Source: a virus
Strand: one strand, 5' to 3'
Length of the DNA: 47,579 bases
Virus record (IMG/VR): IMGVR_UViG_3300021964_000122
Location: 1-47,579 of that record
Shown here piece by piece: positions 28,088-45,083 of this stretch; position 1 is the stretch's first letter, and every line of letters starts with the position of its first letter. A program made the position numbers and the translations under genes. The notes beneath the pieces were generated by a model. That model searched no databases, was not told the DNA's origin, and saw only the letters and a list, made by a program, of their open reading frames with translations.

Positions 28088-28275
28088 TGGAAACACCATG
28101 TATAAAAGTCTGTAAATTAAAAGATGGAGTTTGTTATGGCTGTGGTCGAACCACAAATGAAATTGCAAATTGGTCAAAATATACAACCGAAGAGAGGAGT
28201 AAGATAATTGGACGCTTATCAACAGTACATTCACAAGAGCCGTTACGCCCGTTACCTACCAGAAGAAAAACGTAG
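28087..28275 (+). CDS. DUF1289-family protein
   Basis: A 62-residue protein starting METPCIKVCKLKDGVCYGCGRT and NEIANWSKYTTEER. The CxxxC...CxGCxRT pattern and the EIxxW...TxxER end are those of DUF1289, short Fe-S or zinc-binding proteins of unknown role. The start overlaps the previous stop as TAATG. Its last 68 bases overlap the reductase gene in another frame; the Pro/Arg-rich end (PLRPLPTRRKT) looks unlike the family core and may be a by-product of the overlap. Confidence 0.8.
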   Translation: METPCIKVCKLKDGVCYGCGRTTNEIANWSKYTTEERSKIIGRLSTVHSQEPLRPLPTRRKT

Positions 28276-30079
28276 GGAGACATGGGAAGAAACTGTCAAC
28301 CGTTATATTAATTTCTGGGTAGACAGGGGGCATCTAAATGACTTTGATGTTTCAGAAATTTTTAAATGTATTCACGATCTAGATGTTATGCCATCTATGC
28401 GGGCGTTGATGACCGCTGGCCCCGCACTGGATCGAGATAATGTAGCTGGGTTTAATTGTAGCTATCTGCCTATCGACCATCCAAAAGCTTTTGATGAGTT
28501 AATGTATGTACTTATGTGTGGGACAGGCGTTGGCTTCAGCGTTGAGCGACAATATATTTCTAAACTACCAGAGGTTGCAGAAACTTTCCATGACACAGAC
28601 ACAGTTATTAATGTTGCGGATTCGAAGATCGGATGGGCGAAATCGTATCGGGAGTTGGTATCACTGTTGTTTTCAGGTCAAGTTCCCCGATGGGACGTTA
28701 GTAGAGTACGACCTTCAGGTTCCCCGCTCAAAACTTTTGGAGGCAGAGCTAGTGGCCCAGAACCTTTGCTCGACTTATTCCAATTCACTGTGGGACTCTT
28801 TCGGGAAGCTGCTGGAAGAAAGCTTACGTCCATTGAGTGCCACGATCTTTGCTGCAAGATTGCTCAAATCGTCGTCGTTGGAGGGGTAAGGCGCTCTGCG
28901 CTCATCAGCCTCTCTAATCTTACGGATGATCGTATCCGACGATGCAAGCACGGACAATGGTGGGTAGAAGATCCACAGCGAGGACTAGCTAATAACTCAG
29001 CGTGTTATACTGAGAAGCCAGATTTTGAAGGGTTTTTAAATGAGTGGACAAGTTTGTATGAATCGAGATCCGGTGAGCGAGGCGTCTTTTCTAGAGTGGC
29101 TAGTCAAAAACAAGCTGCAAGAAACGAGCGACGAGATGCTACCTATGATTTTGGAACTAATCCATGTAGTGAAATCATCCTCCGACCCTATCAATTCTGC
29201 AATCTATCAGAAGTTGTTGTCAGGCCGACCGATACTCTCGCAAGCCTCAAACGAAAAGTACGGGTTGCGACTATCCTTGGAACTCTACAGGCTACGCTGA
29301 CAGACTTCAGATATTTAAGAACCATTTGGAAAACTAATACAGAAGAAGAAGCATTGTTGGGTGTATCACTGACAGGTATTATGGATCACCCCCTGCTTTC
29401 AGGGAGAGAAGATAATGGTAAGCTCAAAAAGTGGCTTACGGAGATGCGTAATGAAGCTATCGAAACCAACAAAGAATGGGCTAAGAGAGTGGGTATCAAT
29501 GTATCTACCGCTATCACTGCGGTTAAGCCTTCAGGCACTGTTAGTCAGTTGGTCGATTCTGCTAGTGGCATCCATCCTCGGTATAGCAGCCAGTATATAC
29601 GGAGAGTTCGTGCAGATAGCCGTGACCCGCTTTGCGCTATCCTAGAGGCTGCTGGTGTACCTGTAGAGGACGATCTCATGTCACCTAGTACAAGGGTATT
29701 CAGCTTTCCTATCGCCTCTCCTGAAGGCGCTGTGACAGCCTCAGAGATGGGTGCTATGGAGCAGCTAGAACTGTGGGAAATCTATCAGGACTATTGGTGT
29801 GAGCATAAGCCATCTATGACTTGCTACTATCGGGATGATGAGTTTCTTGAGGTAGGACAGTGGCTGTATAATAAGTTTGATAAGGTGTCAGGTATTAGTT
29901 TCCTACCCTACTCAGATCATACTTATCAGCAAGCCCCGTATGAACCTATTGATAAGAAAACATACAATGAGTTGAAAAAGAATTTCCCAACAGAAATCAA
30001 TTGGGATTTGAATGAAGAGTCAGATATGACGGAGGGATCACAGACGCTGGCTTGCGTAGGCAACTCATGTGAATTATAA
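28208..30079 (+). CDS. nrdJ: Class II (adenosylcobalamin-dependent) ribonucleotide reductase
   Basis: A 623-residue monomeric triphosphate-type reductase. It has an RYLPEEKRRETWEETVNRY start, C84 in NCSYLP (redox partner), LMCGTGVGFSVER, TNPCSEI with the thiyl C320 and E322, C331 in QFCNLSE, and a C-terminal LACVGNSCEL pair (C616, C621) that takes electrons from thioredoxin. It needs B12 but no oxygen or separate radical subunit. It starts with a TTG just after GAGGAG, inside the DUF1289 gene. It would make dNTPs from host ribonucleotides. It gives no sign of an intein. Confidence 0.95.
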   Translation: MDAYQQYIHKSRYARYLPEEKRRETWEETVNRYINFWVDRGHLNDFDVSEIFKCIHDLDVMPSMRALMTAGPALDRDNVAGFNCSYLPIDHPKAFDELMYVLMCGTGVGFSVERQYISKLPEVAETFHDTDTVINVADSKIGWAKSYRELVSLLFSGQVPRWDVSRVRPSGSPLKTFGGRASGPEPLLDLFQFTVGLFREAAGRKLTSIECHDLCCKIAQIVVVGGVRRSALISLSNLTDDRIRRCKHGQWWVEDPQRGLANNSACYTEKPDFEGFLNEWTSLYESRSGERGVFSRVASQKQAARNERRDATYDFGTNPCSEIILRPYQFCNLSEVVVRPTDTLASLKRKVRVATILGTLQATLTDFRYLRTIWKTNTEEEALLGVSLTGIMDHPLLSGREDNGKLKKWLTEMRNEAIETNKEWAKRVGINVSTAITAVKPSGTVSQLVDSASGIHPRYSSQYIRRVRADSRDPLCAILEAAGVPVEDDLMSPSTRVFSFPIASPEGAVTASEMGAMEQLELWEIYQDYWCEHKPSMTCYYRDDEFLEVGQWLYNKFDKVSGISFLPYSDHTYQQAPYEPIDKKTYNELKKNFPTEINWDLNEESDMTEGSQTLACVGNSCEL

Positions 30080-31468: not shown

Positions 31469-31735
31469 TTAATCTCCTTCGGGGAATACTGTCATTTTTA
31501 AATTAGAAATTATCCAAGACTTTGGTATCGCAAGCTCTGCATCGCCTTCTGATATTTCATTATCTTCAAGAATCATGTGAGGACAAATAATTATTTTTTC
31601 ATCGTCCTCGTGGATGATAGCGCCACAAGAAACTACTGTGGCTGTCTTCTGTTCTTTTAAATCTGATAAAGAACGCCAGCCCATGTTTGAGCCTCCAGCG
31701 GCGTCACGCCATATAACTCTATGTAGCGTTACCAC
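31469..31735 (-). CDS. Small acidic phage protein, GTG start
   Basis: An 88-residue protein (MVTLHRVIWRDAAGGSNMGW...). The pattern VxWxDA...GWxSL...VxxGxxIHEDDExIIxxPH is that of a small phage family of unknown role. The GTG at 31735 overlaps the upstream stop; a downstream ATG (31684) would cut the conserved VIWRDA part, so GTG is chosen. It lies at the end of the large virion proteins and continues the coupled run. Confidence 0.6.
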   Translation of the reverse strand: MVTLHRVIWRDAAGGSNMGWRSLSDLKEQKTATVVSCGAIIHEDDEKIIICPHMILEDNEISEGDAELAIPKSWIISNLKMTVFPEGD

Positions 31736-34587
31736 TTCGTCTTGTCAGCCCAATAAGCCGCAGACATTTTGCCCTTCTTGATGTTACGTCTGTGACGGGC
31801 TTTGAAGCTCTTGCGCTTGGCCTTCATACGCGCTGACTCACCCGCCTTGGGCTTACCAGCAGTCTTCGCGCCTTGCTCACCAAAACGAATAATCTTTTCT
31901 TTACCGTCTTCGCAGGCTTTTACGACATGAGACTTCTTAGCATGGTTAGGTGTGCGTCGAGGCTTGTTGCAGGCCATCTTGTCTTTGTCAACTCTACCGC
32001 CTTTGGCATAGCCACGAATCGTGTAGCTTTCTTCGGGCGTCATGAATCTGGCAGTTTTACTTTCAATCATTTCACGGATCTTCTTCTCTGCCTCTGCTCG
32101 CGTCTTAGCCTCTATCTCAAAGCCTAACTCATTATTAGCAAGATCCATCCTACGCCCATGCACATCTAGAATCTCACGCGCATCTGCGGCAAACTTCGCG
32201 GCTTTAGGATACTTCGCCTGTTTAGCCAGCCACCCAAGCCCAAGGTGTCTTGCAGCATCGCCGCGCCCATCTAGCTCTTCGCGCATACCATATTTACCAC
32301 CAAGACTATTGGCCCAAGCTAAATCTTCTTTAGAGATTCCTAAGACTTTAGCGACTTTCTGCTGGGGATTTATTTTTTGGAGTTTCTTTTGGAAAGCCTG
32401 AATTAGACCACCAATAAAAACCTGTTCTCGTCCTTCATTTTGCAGACCAAACTCGGCTGCTTCCCCTAAATAAATTTTACTTTTAAATTGATTACCGGGA
32501 AACTTGCCAGCCGCATAGCGCAACGCACTATAAGTATCTTTTACTTTATCTTGAGGTATTTCTGAAAAGTCATAAACATCTGTAGCATAAAGCTTACCGT
32601 CTTCAACTTTTAGTGTAGCGCCCCCAACAGAAAATGCAGCCTCTTCTTGAGAAGTTATATCGCCCGTTATCATTCTTCTAATAAAGCTTTCTTCTTTTCT
32701 TTTTTCAGGACTAGACGCCTTACCGCGAATGTTACCGCCTCTATAATCTTCGTAATCAATGTGCATACGCCCAGAAGCAATAGCATTTTTTGCAGCCGTT
32801 CTAATTTCATCTACCACCGCAGTATCATAATCCTCTGCTGTTTTATCACCGCCAAAAGGATTTAGAAAGCTACCAAGATTAGAGAAGACTTGATTTTTTT
32901 CAACAGGCTCTTTAATTCTTAAAGACTCTCCAGCTACAATCTTGTTAGGGTCTTCGATTTTATTAAATCTTTGTAGATCTTCTACGCTCACGCCAGTTTC
33001 TTTTGCAATACGAGCAAGGGTGTCTCCCTGCTGAATAGTGCGCCTAGTATCTTCTTGTTTTATTTCTTGATTTCTTTCAAAGAACTTTCTGGCAAATGAA
33101 ATAATACCTCCGTCATTTGCACCAAAACGAGGATCTTCTGGATCAAAGCGTTGAGCAAACACAGACTTGTATTGTTCTGGTCTAAAAAGAATATAGGAGT
33201 ATGCTTCCTCTCCACGATATGAAGGCTCATAGTTGTTGATGTATTTTATAGAATCAAAACCATAAGACTCGATCCATTTTGAAATCTTTTTGTTAAGCAT
33301 TGCTTCTTCAGCATTCAGCATACTTTCTGATAGGAAATCAAACTTAGCGAACTTCGCTTTTCGAATAGCGTCAGCAGCATCTTCTAGCTCAAAAAAATCT
33401 GGGGTTTGTAAAATATCCTCAATATCCAAACCAGTTTGATCTGAAATAGCCTGTGCAATTTTTACACTCATGCTTCTACTATCAACAATATTTAGTGGCT
33501 GTGCGTCTAATAGTTCAGAACCAACCCAAGGGCCATCATTAGCTCCTAAGTCCAAAGGATTTTTTACGTTTATGTATCCCTTCTGAACAACAACAGGGCT
33601 GGTTTTTAGTTGACTTGCTGCGGCCAGTACAGCACCTCTCTGCTCTGGTGTTGTCTCAGGCATACTATTCCAAATAGAATCTTCATCCATCCCAGACTTT
33701 AGCTTTGTAATATACTCATCAAACAAAGTATAAATTTTTAAAACATCTTCTTTGTCTACAACTTTATTTACAACCCTGTCTTTAGTATCACCCGCCGTTC
33801 TTTTGATCCCTGTTTCAGCAATGTTAGAAACAATGTCGGCCTTGGCTCCCTCGCCAAATAATTTTGCGGTTGCTAAAAAGTTAGCTTGGCCTTCTGTGCC
33901 TGCATGGACTCCAATTTCGTTAGGATTAAAAAACCTTGTATCAAATTCAAAATCAGCCCCACTGCCCACAGCCCTAAAAATAGGATTAGTTTCCTGAGAA
34001 CCAGAAAGAAATTTTTCTAGAGCCACATCTCTATTTTCAATCGCAGCAATTTCCTGCTCAATCCCTAGCTTTTGTGGTGGAGCCTCTTCAAATAAACTGC
34101 TATACTTTTTATTTGCTTTTAAACTTTTGACTGTCTGCTCTGCAACACCCTGCTTGGCCTCTTCTGTAATAAGTTGCGAACCGGGGCCACGACCAACACG
34201 ACCTTTATAATACTCTACAAAAATATTATCGCTGTCGGCTAACTCTACATCTTTTGCTTTATCATCCGCAAGCTTGTAATAATTTAAATTATGATATGCC
34301 GCAGCTAATGGACTATCACTAGCGTTAAACAAAGTATTTTCAAAGTCTAAAAATATTGCATCATCAGGATCAATAAACATATCTGATTCAAATTTATCGC
34401 CTTCATTATCAATCATTGCCTTGCCCATACGAACAAGATATTCTTGACTGTCAGCATCGTCTAAAAGATGCTTTTCAACAACAGTATTTACTGGCTCCTC
34501 CAAAAGATTAGCAAGCTTGCTAGAGTCAAAAAGATCTCCGCTTTGCTTTGCCATGTGGCGAGCAAGTGCTGTAGCAATAAAATTCAT
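31729..34587 (-). CDS. Large virion protein with ADP-ribosyltransferase-like, LysM and C-terminal basic modules
   Basis: A 952-residue multi-domain protein, likely ejected. Residues 200-480 look like an ADP-ribosyltransferase of the polyvalent-protein type: NEIGVHAGTEGQANF (His for NAD), VQKGYINVKNPLDLG, and WIESYGFDSIKYINNYE then YSYILFRPEQYKSV. A LysM domain (TIQQGDTLARIAKETGV, residues about 516-560) should bind peptidoglycan. Residues 775-825 hold DAARHLGLGW and RMDLANNELG, like the DUF6973-type motif. The end (KSHVVKACEDGKEKIIRFG, SFKARHRRNIKKGKMSAAYW) is a basic module found in many phages. The ART call is from memory of motifs and needs a profile search. Confidence 0.7.
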   Translation of the reverse strand: MNFIATALARHMAKQSGDLFDSSKLANLLEEPVNTVVEKHLLDDADSQEYLVRMGKAMIDNEGDKFESDMFIDPDDAIFLDFENTLFNASDSPLAAAYHNLNYYKLADDKAKDVELADSDNIFVEYYKGRVGRGPGSQLITEEAKQGVAEQTVKSLKANKKYSSLFEEAPPQKLGIEQEIAAIENRDVALEKFLSGSQETNPIFRAVGSGADFEFDTRFFNPNEIGVHAGTEGQANFLATAKLFGEGAKADIVSNIAETGIKRTAGDTKDRVVNKVVDKEDVLKIYTLFDEYITKLKSGMDEDSIWNSMPETTPEQRGAVLAAASQLKTSPVVVQKGYINVKNPLDLGANDGPWVGSELLDAQPLNIVDSRSMSVKIAQAISDQTGLDIEDILQTPDFFELEDAADAIRKAKFAKFDFLSESMLNAEEAMLNKKISKWIESYGFDSIKYINNYEPSYRGEEAYSYILFRPEQYKSVFAQRFDPEDPRFGANDGGIISFARKFFERNQEIKQEDTRRTIQQGDTLARIAKETGVSVEDLQRFNKIEDPNKIVAGESLRIKEPVEKNQVFSNLGSFLNPFGGDKTAEDYDTAVVDEIRTAAKNAIASGRMHIDYEDYRGGNIRGKASSPEKRKEESFIRRMITGDITSQEEAAFSVGGATLKVEDGKLYATDVYDFSEIPQDKVKDTYSALRYAAGKFPGNQFKSKIYLGEAAEFGLQNEGREQVFIGGLIQAFQKKLQKINPQQKVAKVLGISKEDLAWANSLGGKYGMREELDGRGDAARHLGLGWLAKQAKYPKAAKFAADAREILDVHGRRMDLANNELGFEIEAKTRAEAEKKIREMIESKTARFMTPEESYTIRGYAKGGRVDKDKMACNKPRRTPNHAKKSHVVKACEDGKEKIIRFGEQGAKTAGKPKAGESARMKAKRKSFKARHRRNIKKGKMSAAYWADKTKW

Positions 34588-37500
34588 TATGTAATCCTCG
34601 CCAAAAGACTTCGTTCTTCTTCATCTTGAAAAGCTGTGCCAGCCTGTTCATCATAAGGAAGCCCTGTCATTTTATCTACACGCTCATCAGGTTCTTTAGG
34701 TGCTTGGGGTACAGAGACTTCCCCACCCTTTGCAAAATTAGCCTTTTTAGTTTTTGGAACCACGGCCTCCTTTATTGCTGTGTCTATATCACCCAAAGTT
34801 TCACGATACTCTGTCATAGTTTCTTTGCCCAATACAGGCTGACCTAAGCCATAAAAAGGTACTTTAGTGCCAAGCGTTCTCAAAGGCTTTCTATATCCAA
34901 ATATCGCAGCAGTATCACTTACTGTAGGCCCAAACATACCAACAGCAAGGCCGGGAGTCCCTAGATATTCAACATTATTTTTTGCTCTATAGATTTGATC
35001 TGCAATAATTCCATTACCGCCCCATCGGGCTAACGACTCATATCCAATCTGAATTGGATCTTTATCTTCAAAACCCTCGCCACGAGTTCTTGCGTAGTTG
35101 GTGGCCCCTGCCACAGCAGTCATAAGCAGCGCAGTAGGTACTAATTTTTCAGCCGCCATTTCTTTATCACGCACAAAGCGCTTTGCCCCACGCTTTAAAA
35201 TGTTATTAGAGAAAGCTGTGGGATAGCCCATAAGCTGATAAGCAAGACTGCCTAGAGGTGTATTATGTGCGCGAGGCTTGAGGCCCGACATTCTTGTAGG
35301 TTGTAGAATAATTTGGTTTGTGTAACGAGCAGCGCCCTGTAGTAGTTCAGTATAGAAAGGATCGTTCCTGCTCTTTCCAGCCGCTGACCATGCCTTTGCT
35401 TTTTCAACATCAATACCAAACTCAGCAAGGTCATCAAGTTTACTTTGCATTCTTCGCGTCATAGGAGCAGCACCATGAGCCGCCACCTCATCTATTGTTT
35501 TTGCAAGGTATCGCTTACCAGTTTGAAACGAAACATTCTGAACAAACTTTGTCCACTGGTCTAGCATAGTAACTCTAAAAAATTTATTGCTGGCTTTTTG
35601 CATTGTACCTTCAACCATATCACCAGCAAGGCGATCAGCCATAGACTCTAGTTGCTGTTCCATAATCAAGCCAAACTGCTGCATTTCATGCCATGCTTCT
35701 TCTGGCGTAAGACCAAAATCATCAATAAGTTTTTTGTGGGAGTCTTCTGTAATTGTTTTTATACCTGTTTTATGGGCATTTAGGAAACGATCTACGTCTG
35801 CTTTTGCTTTAGCATTAGAGATATTCCAAGCTGCTTTAAAGCCATCTATAGTTGAGCCTCCTGCAACACCAAAGTTCAGCAGAATCTCTGTTAAACTAGA
35901 TACTGTTGCCAAAGGAAGCAGGGCCATTCTTTGAGCAAGCTGAATACCTTGATTAATTTGTCCCGCACCTCCAACACCTTCTCCAGTGAGGTTGGCGTAC
36001 AAGTCTCTAAAGCGTTTTAAATCTTTATCACTTAAAGAAGCGCCACCTGACTGTGCTTCTCTGCGAATTTGATTTATCCATTTTGATTCAAATTCTTGTG
36101 CGTTTCTAACTCCAAAAACTCTTTTCTTAGCAAGCGCCATGCCTGCCTGAGTCATGTAATTAAAAAATGTTTGTTGAACATCATTGTTTAAAAACTCTTC
36201 AAACATTGCATCGTCAGTGATATTTTTAAATGTTCGATTAGAACTAAAGAAATAATCACGAGAGCCGCTGTACATTTGGTTATTTTTATCCAACATACCG
36301 CCAATACCGTTTAGCTCTGGGCCATCAATAATCTTCATGGCTGAAGCTAAGTCTTTAGCTTCTCCAGACTCAACAAGAAGCTGGGCAAATCTTTCTTTAT
36401 TGTTTTCAATTGCAGAGCGTTTCCACTGTCGAGGTACATAATTCTCAATAGGTGTAGAAATAAATCCCTCGCGCTGAAGAAGCTCTCCTGCAACCTGATA
36501 AACTTTTTTAATGTTCATTGCTGTATGGTTTACAGCTTTACTATATTTTTGACCTGATGATCCTTGACCACGCAGCGCAAGAGAAAGCGCATCATTGATC
36601 TCATCTTCCAAGCCAACATTAAAGCGGTTGTTTGCAATAGGCAGAATAGCTTTTATATATTCTTCAAAAAAAGAACCAGTAATATTTCTCTGGGCTTCAG
36701 CAAAATCTTCTTGAACTGTCCTTTGACCACCTGTTAGCCGCCACTCTAAGGCAAACTCATTGCTGGTTTTTTCCTGTAAAAGTTTTGCAGTAGGAGATAT
36801 TTCAGTATAAGGCGACAAAAACCCTCCTGCCTTTCCGAACATCTGACTAGATGTAAAAGTGCTTAGGCCTTTGTGTAAACGAAACAATAAATCACTTTGA
36901 ATTACTTTTTGTTCTTTTCCAGAATGGGCCGCTGCAAGTGCTGCGTCTACCATAGCCTCGTAAGTTTCTTGTCCACCACCAACACGGCGTACAAGCTCCT
37001 CTAAGCCCTCTACAGCAAGGACATCTTCTGGTTGTAGATCAGTACCCTTTTCTGAAATTATCCCATCTAGGTCGTCTACAAGACCTCCTAGAAGCTCTTC
37101 CATGCCCCTTCTAAATTCTTCTTCGGGATCAGGAAAAACCTCATCAATATCATTTATTGTACCGTCTAGAATTTTTAGCATTTCTTGACGCAGGAACTCT
37201 TCATCTGAAAGTTCTGCAACTTCATCAATAGAGTTTACAGCCACCGTTGTTGGGCCAGTTTCAAAGTCAAGCGTCAACTGAACAGGTTGTTCTGTAGTAG
37301 GTGGATCAATATCTAAATCTTCAACTTGTCTTTTAGTGCCAAGCTTTGAAATACCTTTACCTAAACCATAACCAAACAGGCCACTGATGACAGTAGCTGA
37401 AGCAGTTTGTAGTGGATCAAAGTCTTCTCTAACCCCTATCTCAAGTTCTAGATTTTGAAGGGCTAAATCAGAAGCACCGCCATAGCCTGCACTATAAGTA

Positions 37501-38174
37501 CCTAGACCTGTCGGAGATTTTAAAAATTTAGATGTTGCCTCTGCCGCATCTCCAACGCTTTCCGCAATTGGTTTAGCTTTTGTAGCAAGTTTAAGTGCCT
37601 GTGCCGCTGCTTTAGAACTCGCGGCTCTTGCACCCAACGCAGCTAGTGCTCCTGTACCGCCACTAGCAGCACCACCCACAAGGGCCGCACCAGCATATGC
37701 AGCGTTTTCGTAATTAAAAAGTATATCAGTTCCATAGTCTTTAATTCTATTCAGTTGTTCACCCAAACCATAAACTTCGGAACGATCAAAGTTTTGTCGT
37801 AACTCTTGATATGCCTGCTTAACTTCTTCAGGCGCATCCTTTAAAGCCATTGCTTTATTAATAGTAGAAAAAATACGGGCTTGATCATCTCGCAAAAATT
37901 CTACAGGATCATTGTCTGATCTGTTTATAGCTAGATCTAAAGAATTTAAAAAGCTAGAATTACCAGACAAATAATCCATGACAGTTTCAAAATTTTTAAT
38001 TGTCGTTGGATCACTCCTAAAATCAGTAACGGTATAGTCTGGGCGATCCCCCTCTATCCTAAGATTCCCAGAAGAAGGCAAAGCAAAACTGTACTGCTCT
38101 TTTTGCGTTTCTTCTTTTTGAATTGGAGACTCTAAGCTTTTGTAATAGTCTTCGTATGTTTTTGACTTATACAT
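34587..38174 (-). CDS. Very large internal virion (ejected) protein
   Basis: A 1195-residue protein, mostly helical, with a Gly/Ala-rich stretch at about 160-190 (AYAGAALVGGAASGGTGAL) and another hydrophobic piece (MALLPLATVSSLTEILL). T7-like phages carry proteins of this size inside the capsid (gp15/gp16), ejected into the cell envelope to form a DNA channel. It lies between two other large virion genes and is joined to both by TAATG-type overlaps. I see no lytic transglycosylase motif, unlike T7 gp16; the LysM domain of the next protein may serve wall binding. The role is inferred from size, composition and place. Confidence 0.68.
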   Translation of the reverse strand: MYKSKTYEDYYKSLESPIQKEETQKEQYSFALPSSGNLRIEGDRPDYTVTDFRSDPTTIKNFETVMDYLSGNSSFLNSLDLAINRSDNDPVEFLRDDQARIFSTINKAMALKDAPEEVKQAYQELRQNFDRSEVYGLGEQLNRIKDYGTDILFNYENAAYAGAALVGGAASGGTGALAALGARAASSKAAAQALKLATKAKPIAESVGDAAEATSKFLKSPTGLGTYSAGYGGASDLALQNLELEIGVREDFDPLQTASATVISGLFGYGLGKGISKLGTKRQVEDLDIDPPTTEQPVQLTLDFETGPTTVAVNSIDEVAELSDEEFLRQEMLKILDGTINDIDEVFPDPEEEFRRGMEELLGGLVDDLDGIISEKGTDLQPEDVLAVEGLEELVRRVGGGQETYEAMVDAALAAAHSGKEQKVIQSDLLFRLHKGLSTFTSSQMFGKAGGFLSPYTEISPTAKLLQEKTSNEFALEWRLTGGQRTVQEDFAEAQRNITGSFFEEYIKAILPIANNRFNVGLEDEINDALSLALRGQGSSGQKYSKAVNHTAMNIKKVYQVAGELLQREGFISTPIENYVPRQWKRSAIENNKERFAQLLVESGEAKDLASAMKIIDGPELNGIGGMLDKNNQMYSGSRDYFFSSNRTFKNITDDAMFEEFLNNDVQQTFFNYMTQAGMALAKKRVFGVRNAQEFESKWINQIRREAQSGGASLSDKDLKRFRDLYANLTGEGVGGAGQINQGIQLAQRMALLPLATVSSLTEILLNFGVAGGSTIDGFKAAWNISNAKAKADVDRFLNAHKTGIKTITEDSHKKLIDDFGLTPEEAWHEMQQFGLIMEQQLESMADRLAGDMVEGTMQKASNKFFRVTMLDQWTKFVQNVSFQTGKRYLAKTIDEVAAHGAAPMTRRMQSKLDDLAEFGIDVEKAKAWSAAGKSRNDPFYTELLQGAARYTNQIILQPTRMSGLKPRAHNTPLGSLAYQLMGYPTAFSNNILKRGAKRFVRDKEMAAEKLVPTALLMTAVAGATNYARTRGEGFEDKDPIQIGYESLARWGGNGIIADQIYRAKNNVEYLGTPGLAVGMFGPTVSDTAAIFGYRKPLRTLGTKVPFYGLGQPVLGKETMTEYRETLGDIDTAIKEAVVPKTKKANFAKGGEVSVPQAPKEPDERVDKMTGLPYDEQAGTAFQDEEERSLLARIT

Positions 38175-44723: not shown

Positions 44724-45083
44724 TCAATATGACCAGATAGCAGGAGAAGGAAATTCATCATCTGCCATATCTAAATGTATAAAACGTCCTTTACCTTTTT
44801 GATTTATACCTATTCTTTTAATTTTATGCTTTAAAGCAACTTCAAGAATTTTTAAAGCTTTATCTCCTGTTACAGCTATATCGACTGCACAGCCTTTTGT
44901 ATGCGCCCCTGCACGAGACTTTGAAGCCTCTATAGGATGTTCAATACACCTGTAACCAGAACTAATAATAAAAGGAAAGTTACATTCATGCCTGATATTA
45001 TTTAAAACCTTTAAAAATTCTTCATCAAATTTATATTTACCACAGTGTTGACAAGCTAATTCTTTTTCTGTAAAATATTTCAA
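44724..45083 (-). CDS. Endolysin, peptidase M15A family
   Basis: A 119-residue protein with the zinc peptidase motif of M15 enzymes: SSGYRC, SRAGAHTKGCAVDIAV (H61 and D68) and RFIHLDM (H103), the three zinc ligands. Enzymes of this kind cleave peptide cross-links of peptidoglycan. Two cysteines near the start (CQHC at 11-14) may form a second site. It has no signal peptide, so it would depend on a holin. It overlaps the small membrane gene upstream by four bases. It is the clearest lysis gene in the window. Confidence 0.9.
   Translation of the reverse strand: MKYFTEKELACQHCGKYKFDEEFLKVLNNIRHECNFPFIISSGYRCIEHPIEASKSRAGAHTKGCAVDIAVTGDKALKILEVALKHKIKRIGINQKGKGRFIHLDMADDEFPSPAIWSY

What the first reader, a model, noticed from the sequence alone, without database searches (positions are those of the whole stretch)
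31729..34587. Predicted ejected protein combining ADP-ribosyltransferase-like, LysM and other modules
The 952-residue protein shows GVHAGTE, a YINVKNPLDLG strand and GFDSIKYINNYE...YSYILFRPEQYKSV in order, the pattern of the ART domains of polyvalent phage/plasmid proteins, followed by a LysM domain, a DAARH...MDLxNN motif and a C-terminal basic module. If correct, the phage injects an enzyme that could modify host proteins at the very start of infection, tethered by wall binding. This is a plausible new host-takeover system.
Basis: partly seen in the sequence, partly recalled or inferred. Interest (0 to 1): 0.76.

Follow-up and report, generated by a model that had tools for sequence, protein, structure and literature searches.

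The report
Divergent ADP-ribosyltransferase-like module in phage protein
A marine-type phage carries, late in its virion genes, a multi-part protein that is probably injected with the DNA, and one part descends from enzymes that tag molecules using NAD but has a changed active site, so whether it still works as an enzyme is open.

Summary
Window 31729-34587(-) is a 952-aa ORF with the listed motifs in order. Residues ~165-495 are related to the polyvalent-protein ART family (Pfam PF18760, ART-PolyVal): pairwise profile-profile probability 98.6 (E 1.3e-15; 30 column shuffles at most 1.07), a separate N-half match (71.7, E 3.5e-5), and a fairly confident model with mid-range similarity to tankyrase ART domains. 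It stays below Pfam's cut-off. The gene is the rear part of a larger ejection-type protein (phrog_7348): in four relatives carrier, ART, LysM and a 'DxYDF' domain form one ORF of 2,047-2,577 aa. Here it is a separate gene sharing one base with its carrier gene, with a DUF6973-like module and a fused basic tail (phrog_7595) that is a separate gene elsewhere. Best reading: an injected polyvalent protein with a divergent ART domain of uncertain activity. Injection, catalysis and takeover are inferred. Injected polyvalent ARTs were proposed in 2017 (PMC5512222), so this is a new variant, not a new kind.

The parts
31729..34587 (-). 952-aa polyvalent ejection-type protein (the gene)
   Evidence: ORF; gene junction TAATG with the upstream gene
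34171..34575 (-). N-terminal cap (residues ~5-139), shared by close relatives whatever the middle module
33103..34095 (-). ART-PolyVal-like domain (residues ~165-495)
33973..33975 (-). Arg205, at the place of the strand-1 catalytic His of ART-PolyVal
   Evidence: R 30 of 33, N 3 of 33, H 0; aligned with the His of pT24 P0003
33904..33906 (-). His228, invariant (33 of 33), strand 2 of the model
33226..33228 (-). Glu454, acidic in all rows (E 30, D 3 of 33)
33196..33198 (-). Ser464 (33 of 33), in the strand that carries YSYIL
32911..33039 (-). LysM domain (517-559)
   Evidence: Pfam PF01476 43.1 bits
32452..32886 (-). 'DxYDF' domain (~568-712), end of phrog_7348; weak structural hint of a colicin M-type fold
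32053..32355 (-). DUF6973-like module (~745-845)
31732..31995 (-). basic C-terminal module (865-952), phrog_7595; a separate ~96-aa gene in other phages
34587..38174 (-). 1195-aa carrier / ejection-type protein, front part of phrog_7348
   Evidence: phrog_7348 E 1e-166, phrog_6958 virion structural E 5.1e-14; relatives

Best explanation
The gene encodes the rear part of a large multi-domain ('polyvalent') virion protein ejected into the host with the DNA. SHOWN by sequence: the order carrier (separate 1195-aa gene), N-cap, ART-like domain, LysM, DxYDF domain, DUF6973-like module, phrog_7595 tail; the ART part is homologous to ART-PolyVal; its strand-1 His is replaced by Arg. INFERRED: (a) it is packed in the head and leaves with the carrier; (b) LysM, and perhaps the DxYDF domain, act at the wall or its precursors during passage; (c) the ART domain reaches the cytoplasm, binds NAD+ in a pocket built around R205, H228 and E454, and modifies a host molecule very early, as T4 Alt does. 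Step (c) is the least certain: the residue swap may have altered or abolished catalysis.
For: ART homology: hhalign A4 vs four ART-PolyVal-type domains probability 98.6, E 1.3e-15; reversed 0.14 and 30 shuffles at most 1.07; N half alone 71.7, E 3.5e-5, 30 shuffles at most 3.96. ART-PolyVal is the most frequent Pfam match at E<=1, 19 of 32 members. Model pLDDT 78.4, pTM 0.78; 10 tankyrase-2 entries and 1 tankyrase-1 entry at Z 5.4-6.1, 125-140 residues, rmsd 4.8-7.4. Viral structure library: 11 matches at E<=1e-3, among them the pT24 protein (E 3.6e-5, target TM 0.53, query TM 0.28), which is ART-PolyVal by Pfam (43.8 bits). Delivery: phrog_7348 covers carrier and ART in one profile and several relatives have both in one ORF; carrier relatives are annotated virion structural; the gene lies among the last minus-strand late genes and shares one base with the carrier gene. 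Purifying selection in relatives, dN/dS 0.07-0.29.
Against: Strand-1 His replaced by Arg or Asn in 33 of 33 rows. Below Pfam's cut-off of 31.2 bits: window 16.8-17.2, best printed for the clade 29.4. In the six-frame search of 28 records the window record gave no match, and none of the clade's records was over the cut-off. Foldseek against PDB found nothing significant (best E 0.47; PARP4 only at E 4.3). In one search designed three-helix bundles (Z 7.3) and a phage ejectosome chain (Z 6.3) rank above tankyrase, and Z near 6 is in the range of common arrangements. 7 of 22 carrier contigs lack the ART, so it is not essential to ejection. No virion proteomics or enzymology was seen for this phage.
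Confidence: 0.55

Rival explanations
1. Pseudo-ART: the ART fold is kept as a structural or ligand-binding module of the ejection apparatus (for example in the periplasm) and does no chemistry.
For: Strand-1 His is Arg in 30 of 33 and Asn in 3; the residue after His228 is Val 26, Ala 2, Tyr 2, other 3 of 33; the module is followed by LysM in many relatives, suggesting a wall-side place. PMC7955679 (passages seen) describes an ART-like family, and PARP13, as likely or known pseudoenzymes after losing the usual active-site residues.
Against: R205, H228, the acid at 454 and S464 are strongly conserved and the domain is under purifying selection in relatives, more than a mere spacer needs; Arg at strand 1 is the hallmark of the active R-S-E clade.
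Confidence: 0.33
2. Chiefly a wall-active entry protein: LysM plus the DxYDF domain (possibly a colicin M-type lipid II hydrolase) is the working end; ART is an accessory.
For: phrog_7348 is labelled 'endolysin'. The DxYDF domain was aligned in 23 rows, two of them identical over the domain, and often lies near LysM, also as a separate LysM-DxYDF gene in L099 and L104. Only 1 of 419 chains aligned had Z 2 or more: pectocin M2 (Z 2.5, 95 residues, rmsd 4.5). That pectocin M2 is a colicin M-type bacteriocin, and that D-x-Y-D is the colicin M active-site signature, is recalled.
Against: The 'endolysin' label probably comes from LysM alone (inference). No sequence match to Colicin_M: 0 of 23 records (in which no control rang either) and 0 of 23 domain sequences; no colicin M chain found by profile in PDB sequences; Z 2.5 is weak; Foldseek found nothing significant.
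Confidence: 0.15
3. The ART resemblance is convergent or spurious.
For: Below Pfam's cut-off; weak PF18760 hits also ring in 2 of 14 control genomes at E<=1; no significant Foldseek hit in PDB.
Against: Profile-profile result and its controls; two separate halves match in register; 19 of 32 members hit the same Pfam family when scanned singly.
Confidence: 0.03

Closest known systems
ART-PolyVal (Pfam PF18760), Tox-ART-HYD2 clade; prototype Roseovarius Plymouth podovirus 1 vRNAP
   Same: Homologous in both halves to known members, same motif order, same setting (large phage multi-domain protein) (PMC5512222 section 9)
   Different: Strand-1 His is Arg; the residue after the strand-2 His is Ala/Val instead of Phe/Tyr (4 of 4 known members aligned); below the Pfam cut-off; no virion RNA polymerase or metallopeptidase family among this gene's Pfam hits
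T4 Alt (R-S-E clade, injected ART)
   Same: Works-like comparison only: an ART delivered with the DNA; Arg at strand 1
   Different: Alt/VIP2 is another clade with R, S, E; here strand 2 is V-H-A-G and the late strand Y-S-Y-I-L; no Alt/VIP2-type family among the Pfam hits of the clade; no direct comparison with Alt was made
phrog_7348 ('endolysin', 2564 positions)
   Same: Carrier, ART, LysM and DxYDF in the same order
   Different: Split into two genes here; extra DUF6973-like module and fused phrog_7595 tail
Tenacibaculum phage pT24 176-aa protein (BAV39283.1)
   Same: Only phage record matched by the ART region with tblastn (30.7%, E 0.05; two entries of one genome); among the best matches by predicted structure (rank 5)
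   Different: Stand-alone, keeps the His of the F-H-G-T motif, 43.8 bits in PF18760

Membership tests
ART-PolyVal (PF18760) | score above Pfam's curated cut-off (31.2 bits) | tested here: not met
   window 16.8-17.2 bits; best printed for the clade 29.4; one search prints bits for the window only, its best E 1.1e-6 would be about 30 bits (inference)
ART-PolyVal (PF18760) | homology to known members over the domain | tested here: met
ART-PolyVal (PF18760) | His in strand 1 | tested here: not met
   Arg205; R 30, N 3, H 0 of 33; H in 4 of 4 rows of A5
ART-PolyVal (PF18760) | Tyr in strand 2 | tested here: not met
   the window's strand is V-H-A-G; Tyr at that place in 2 of 33 rows; the known members aligned have F (3) or Y (1) there, and the RPP1 prototype reads F-F by eye
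ART-PolyVal (PF18760) | Asp in strand 5 | tested here: inconclusive
   Tyr463/Ser464; the same Ser is in 4 of 4 known members aligned, so the place of the Asp is unclear; acid at 454 is E 30, D 3 of 33
ART-PolyVal (PF18760) | NAD-dependent ADP-ribosyl transfer | not testable with these tools
   needs enzymology
R-S-E clade ARTs (T4 Alt, ART1) | Arg in strand 1, Ser motif in strand 2, Glu in strand 5 | tested here: not met
   only the Arg agrees; strand 2 is V-H-A-G, late strand Y-S-Y-I-L
Polyvalent proteins (Iyer 2017) | several domains of unlike kinds in one phage late-gene polypeptide | tested here: met
   the activities themselves are not tested
Polyvalent proteins (Iyer 2017) | delivered into the host | not testable with these tools
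   position and relatives only
LysM (PF01476) | score above cut-off | tested here: met
   43.1 vs 20.9 bits
DUF6973 (PF22322) | score above cut-off | tested here: inconclusive
   22.2 bits in the whole protein, 27.4 in the excised region, cut-off 27
Colicin M | sequence match to Colicin_M (PF14859) | tested here: inconclusive
   0 of 23 records and 0 of 23 domain sequences, but no control rang
Colicin M | fold | tested here: inconclusive
   pectocin M2 Z 2.5, the only chain of 419 with Z 2 or more

The most novel reading that the evidence does not exclude
A marine phage clade ejects a modular protein with two catalytic warheads between conserved delivery ends: an ART of a new active-site class (R at strand 1, invariant H at strand 2, acid in the following hairpin) that modifies a host molecule, and a colicin M-type lipid II hydrolase next to a LysM; the module between the constant ends is exchanged among close relatives.
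Probability: 0.1. Interest if true: 0.78.

Novelty: new variant of a known kind. Interest (0 to 1): 0.45.

Why it matters
It adds a conserved ART-PolyVal offshoot with a rewritten strand-1 residue, a direct test of whether such phage domains are enzymes or pseudoenzymes. The carrier/cargo layout (constant ends, exchangeable middle, gene fission and fusion) shows how ejection-type proteins gain and lose effector domains.

Tried and rejected
Tried without result: ART region by tblastn in phage records (2 records, both pT24, E 0.05); genome-contig scan with A3 (36 stretches matched a pattern, none a relative); A4 profile against PDB sequences (no ART; best E 0.034, a heat shock protein); A6 profile against PDB (one chain, E 5.2); Foldseek PDB for both models; Colicin_M by family; scan with the canonical L117 ART (only itself); NCBIfam for the target (LysM-type hits and one unrelated at E 0.058). 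Papers: ART-PolyVal (1 paper); LysM with 'internal virion protein' and 'ejected' (none); cyanophage A4 with ejectosome (none); colicin M with phage, lipid II and virion (2 listed, not opened); KPP25 with structural protein (7 listed; passages of PMC13340246 seen, no proteomics there); ejection papers (10 of 58 listed; passages of PMC10386132 seen: no LysM, polyvalent or ribosyl). PMC11654794 (passages) reports an ART gene in a Pseudoalteromonas phage, without test.

Rejected: 'endolysin' as the function (label of phrog_7348); GVHAGTE His as the catalytic strand-1 His (the register puts Arg205 there). The top Foldseek PDB row, a cyanophage A4 pre-ejectosome chain (E 0.47; Z 6.3), was not taken as evidence.

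Dropped rows: L064 was left out of the 33-row residue counts (misaligned; a canonical His-type ART, better seen as L117) and of A4; L098 has masked letters, is in the counts but not in A4; partial ORFs L059, L063, L105 were not in the ART counts; the RPP1 domain was scanned with Pfam but not put in A5. In one search each of nine further loci (L136-L144) gave an Arg-bearing motif, but the expression could find only Arg forms and the nine hold four distinct strings, so they are not added to the count. A second expression hit other residues there and was not used.
Full report
Observation. The ORF at 31729-34587(-) is 952 aa from ATG. Pfam gives LysM at 517-559 (E 4.2e-11) and a sub-threshold DUF6973 at 745-845 (E 1.1e-4) in the whole protein; the excised DUF6973 region just reaches the cut-off (27.4 vs 27). 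PHROGs gives phrog_7595 at 868-952 (E 6.6e-36) and phrog_7348 at 329-496 (E 1.7e-31).

Surroundings. The window is a whole IMG/VR virus record of 47,579 bases, classed linear, with no exact terminal repeat of 10-199 bases and 41% GC. Its host is not known; the marine label rests on relatives of the C-terminal tail, which lie mostly in phages of Roseobacter-group bacteria and marine cyanobacteria. Minus-strand genes include terminase, portal (SU10-type), major head protein and a tail protein; the target is among the last of the minus-strand late genes, with two small ORFs after it. It begins at the stop of the 1195-aa gene (TAATG, one shared base), which suggests translational coupling. That upstream gene matches phrog_7348 (E 1e-166) and a virion structural family, phrog_6958 (E 5.1e-14); its distant relatives in isolates include the Pseudomonas phage KPP25 'virion structural protein' at about 21% identity (label as in the record, its basis not seen).

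Anatomy across relatives. phrog_7348 (2564 positions) covers the carrier (339-1075), the ART part (1446-1607), LysM (about 2077-2157) and a C-terminal DxYDF domain (2382-2559). My architecture table of 36 sources (several are chosen or overlapping contigs) shows several layouts: carrier, ART, LysM and DxYDF in one ORF with phrog_7595 as a separate gene (L062, L082, L093, L107; 2,047-2,577 aa); one ORF with carrier and ART, with or without LysM (L047, L060, L145); carrier plus ART in one ORF and LysM plus DxYDF in the next (L099, L104); two genes with phrog_7595 separate (L054, L055, L143); and two genes with phrog_7595 fused to the second (window, L031, L036, L038, L042, L136, L138, L139, L141, L142, L144). 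So the target gene is the rear part of a known kind of giant protein. In the window's closest relatives the tail is nearly constant (85.7-87.0% identical) while other aligned stretches are 28-35%, LysM up to 58.5%, and the middle differs: ART in L031 and L036/L037, other modules in L034, L033 and L030. Of the 22 carrier contigs, 15 carry the ART downstream or in the same ORF and 7 do not (L131, L134, L034, L146, L147, L149, L150); the count is, and some contigs are near copies of each other. The DUF6973-like module sits in the window, in L082, and in L146, L147 and L149, which lack ART.

The ART question. A 3-sequence profile, then a 16-sequence one, found 27 and then 51 distinct loci in viral contigs (overlapping sets) and none in genome contigs. 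34 distinct domains were aligned and 33 counted. Pfam's ART-PolyVal is the most frequent match at E<=1, 19 of 32 members; the window scores 16.8 bits, the best printed relative 29.4, cut-off 31.2. In a six-frame search of 28 records 11 matched at E<=1; the two over the cut-off were the prototype RPP1 and L117's record, both of the His type; the window record gave none, and 2 of 14 control genomes also rang weakly. Profile-profile comparison with four ART-PolyVal-type domains (pT24, Tunturi_5, L117, Pag-Yong1; the Pag-Yong1 one itself scored only 23.5 bits, on a short stretch) gave probability 98.6, E 1.3e-15 over the C-terminal part; against 30 column-shuffled copies the best was 1.07 and against the reversed one 0.14. 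The N-terminal halves alone gave 71.7, E 3.5e-5, with 30 shuffles at most 3.96; against pT24 alone 71.9, E 3.4e-5. These are single-pair values, not a database search.

Structure. The model of residues 158-512 has pLDDT 78.4 and pTM 0.78, with 54 residues under 50; IFRAV is strand 46-50 of the model, VHAG 70-73, SIKYIN 289-294, YSYIL 306-310. Foldseek against PDB found nothing significant. VIA-align of 999 chains listed 10 tankyrase-2 entries and 1 tankyrase-1 entry at Z 5.4-6.1 (125-140 residues, rmsd 4.8-7.4), but designed helical bundles reached Z 7.3 and the tool warns that such Z is common. In the viral library 11 hits had E<=1e-3, among them pT24's ART (E 3.6e-5); some lower rows are named ART-PolyVal-like. 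Alone this would be weak; with the profile evidence it is consistent.

Active site. Iyer et al. (PMC5512222, section 9 read) define the polyvalent ARTs by His (strand 1), Tyr (strand 2), Asp (strand 5). In this clade the strand-1 His is Arg205 (R 30, N 3, H 0 of 33), the residue after the invariant H228 is mostly Val, and S464 is invariant. The same Ser occurs in the four known members aligned, so the third position does not separate them. An acid at 454 is kept (E 30, D 3). Strand-1 Arg is the mark of the R-S-E clade (a table in PMC7955679, passages seen, lists RGV for ART1), but the other R-S-E marks are absent. The domain is under purifying selection in relatives (7 pairs, dN/dS 0.07-0.29, one pair near saturation at synonymous sites). 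Hence: family descent shown, catalysis open.

The DxYDF domain. Its model (pLDDT 77.5, pTM 0.70) gave one VIA hit with Z 2 or more out of 419 chains: pectocin M2, Z 2.5. D670 (23 of 23), Y672 (20 Y, 3 F), D673 (16 D, 7 N), F674 and Y686 (23 of 23) and R690 (18 of 23) are conserved (two of the 23 rows are the same domain). No sequence-level test supported it, nor did Foldseek. It is a lead only.

Mechanism and novelty. T4 Alt is the known precedent of an injected ART, and polyvalent proteins with ARTs were proposed to be injected (PMC5512222). Both points are inference. The finding is a new variant of a known kind: a divergent, possibly altered, ART-PolyVal relative in a modular ejection-type protein. 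I saw no paper on this clade in the searches (open-licence PMC papers only; one search listed 10 of 58; listings and, where cited, passages).

Noticed in passing
window 32452-32886 (-) (residues ~568-712); also L099:7807-8697 and L104:7864-8760 as separate LysM-DxYDF genes: A conserved phage domain with a D-x-Y/F-D/N-F motif; its only structural hit with Z 2 or more is pectocin M2 (Z 2.5), a possible colicin M-type lipid II hydrolase in virion proteins.
   Followed up: partly
window 31732-31995 (-); 96-aa ORFs such as L054:7903-8190: phrog_7595 basic module: a separate small gene in many marine phages, fused to the ejection-type protein's C-terminus in this clade and nearly constant there (85.7-87.0%); function unknown, possibly a packaging or targeting tag.
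   Followed up: partly
L034:3825-4592, L030:13540-14772, L033:13576-15717: Close relatives replace the ART with other middle modules between the same N-cap and C-tail (cargo exchange); no Pfam match better than E 0.05 for the L034 and L030 stretches scanned.
   Followed up: partly
L106, L110, L112: ART-like domains with Asn instead of Arg or His at the strand-1 position, in ORFs of 1009-1318 aa.
   Followed up: no
model of residues 158-512 vs PDB 9k3a chain B: The top Foldseek PDB row is a cyanophage A4 pre-ejectosome chain (E 0.47; VIA Z 6.3), not significant but of the expected functional class; worth a manual superposition.
   Followed up: no
window 28208-30079 (+): Ribonucleotide reductase with a B12-dependent (class II) insertion domain hit (phrog_367 E 5.1e-185; Pfam RNR-II_ins_dom).
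   Followed up: no
window 44724-45083 (-): Match to an endolysin family (phrog_894, E 8.8e-32); perhaps the phage's lysis enzyme.
   Followed up: no
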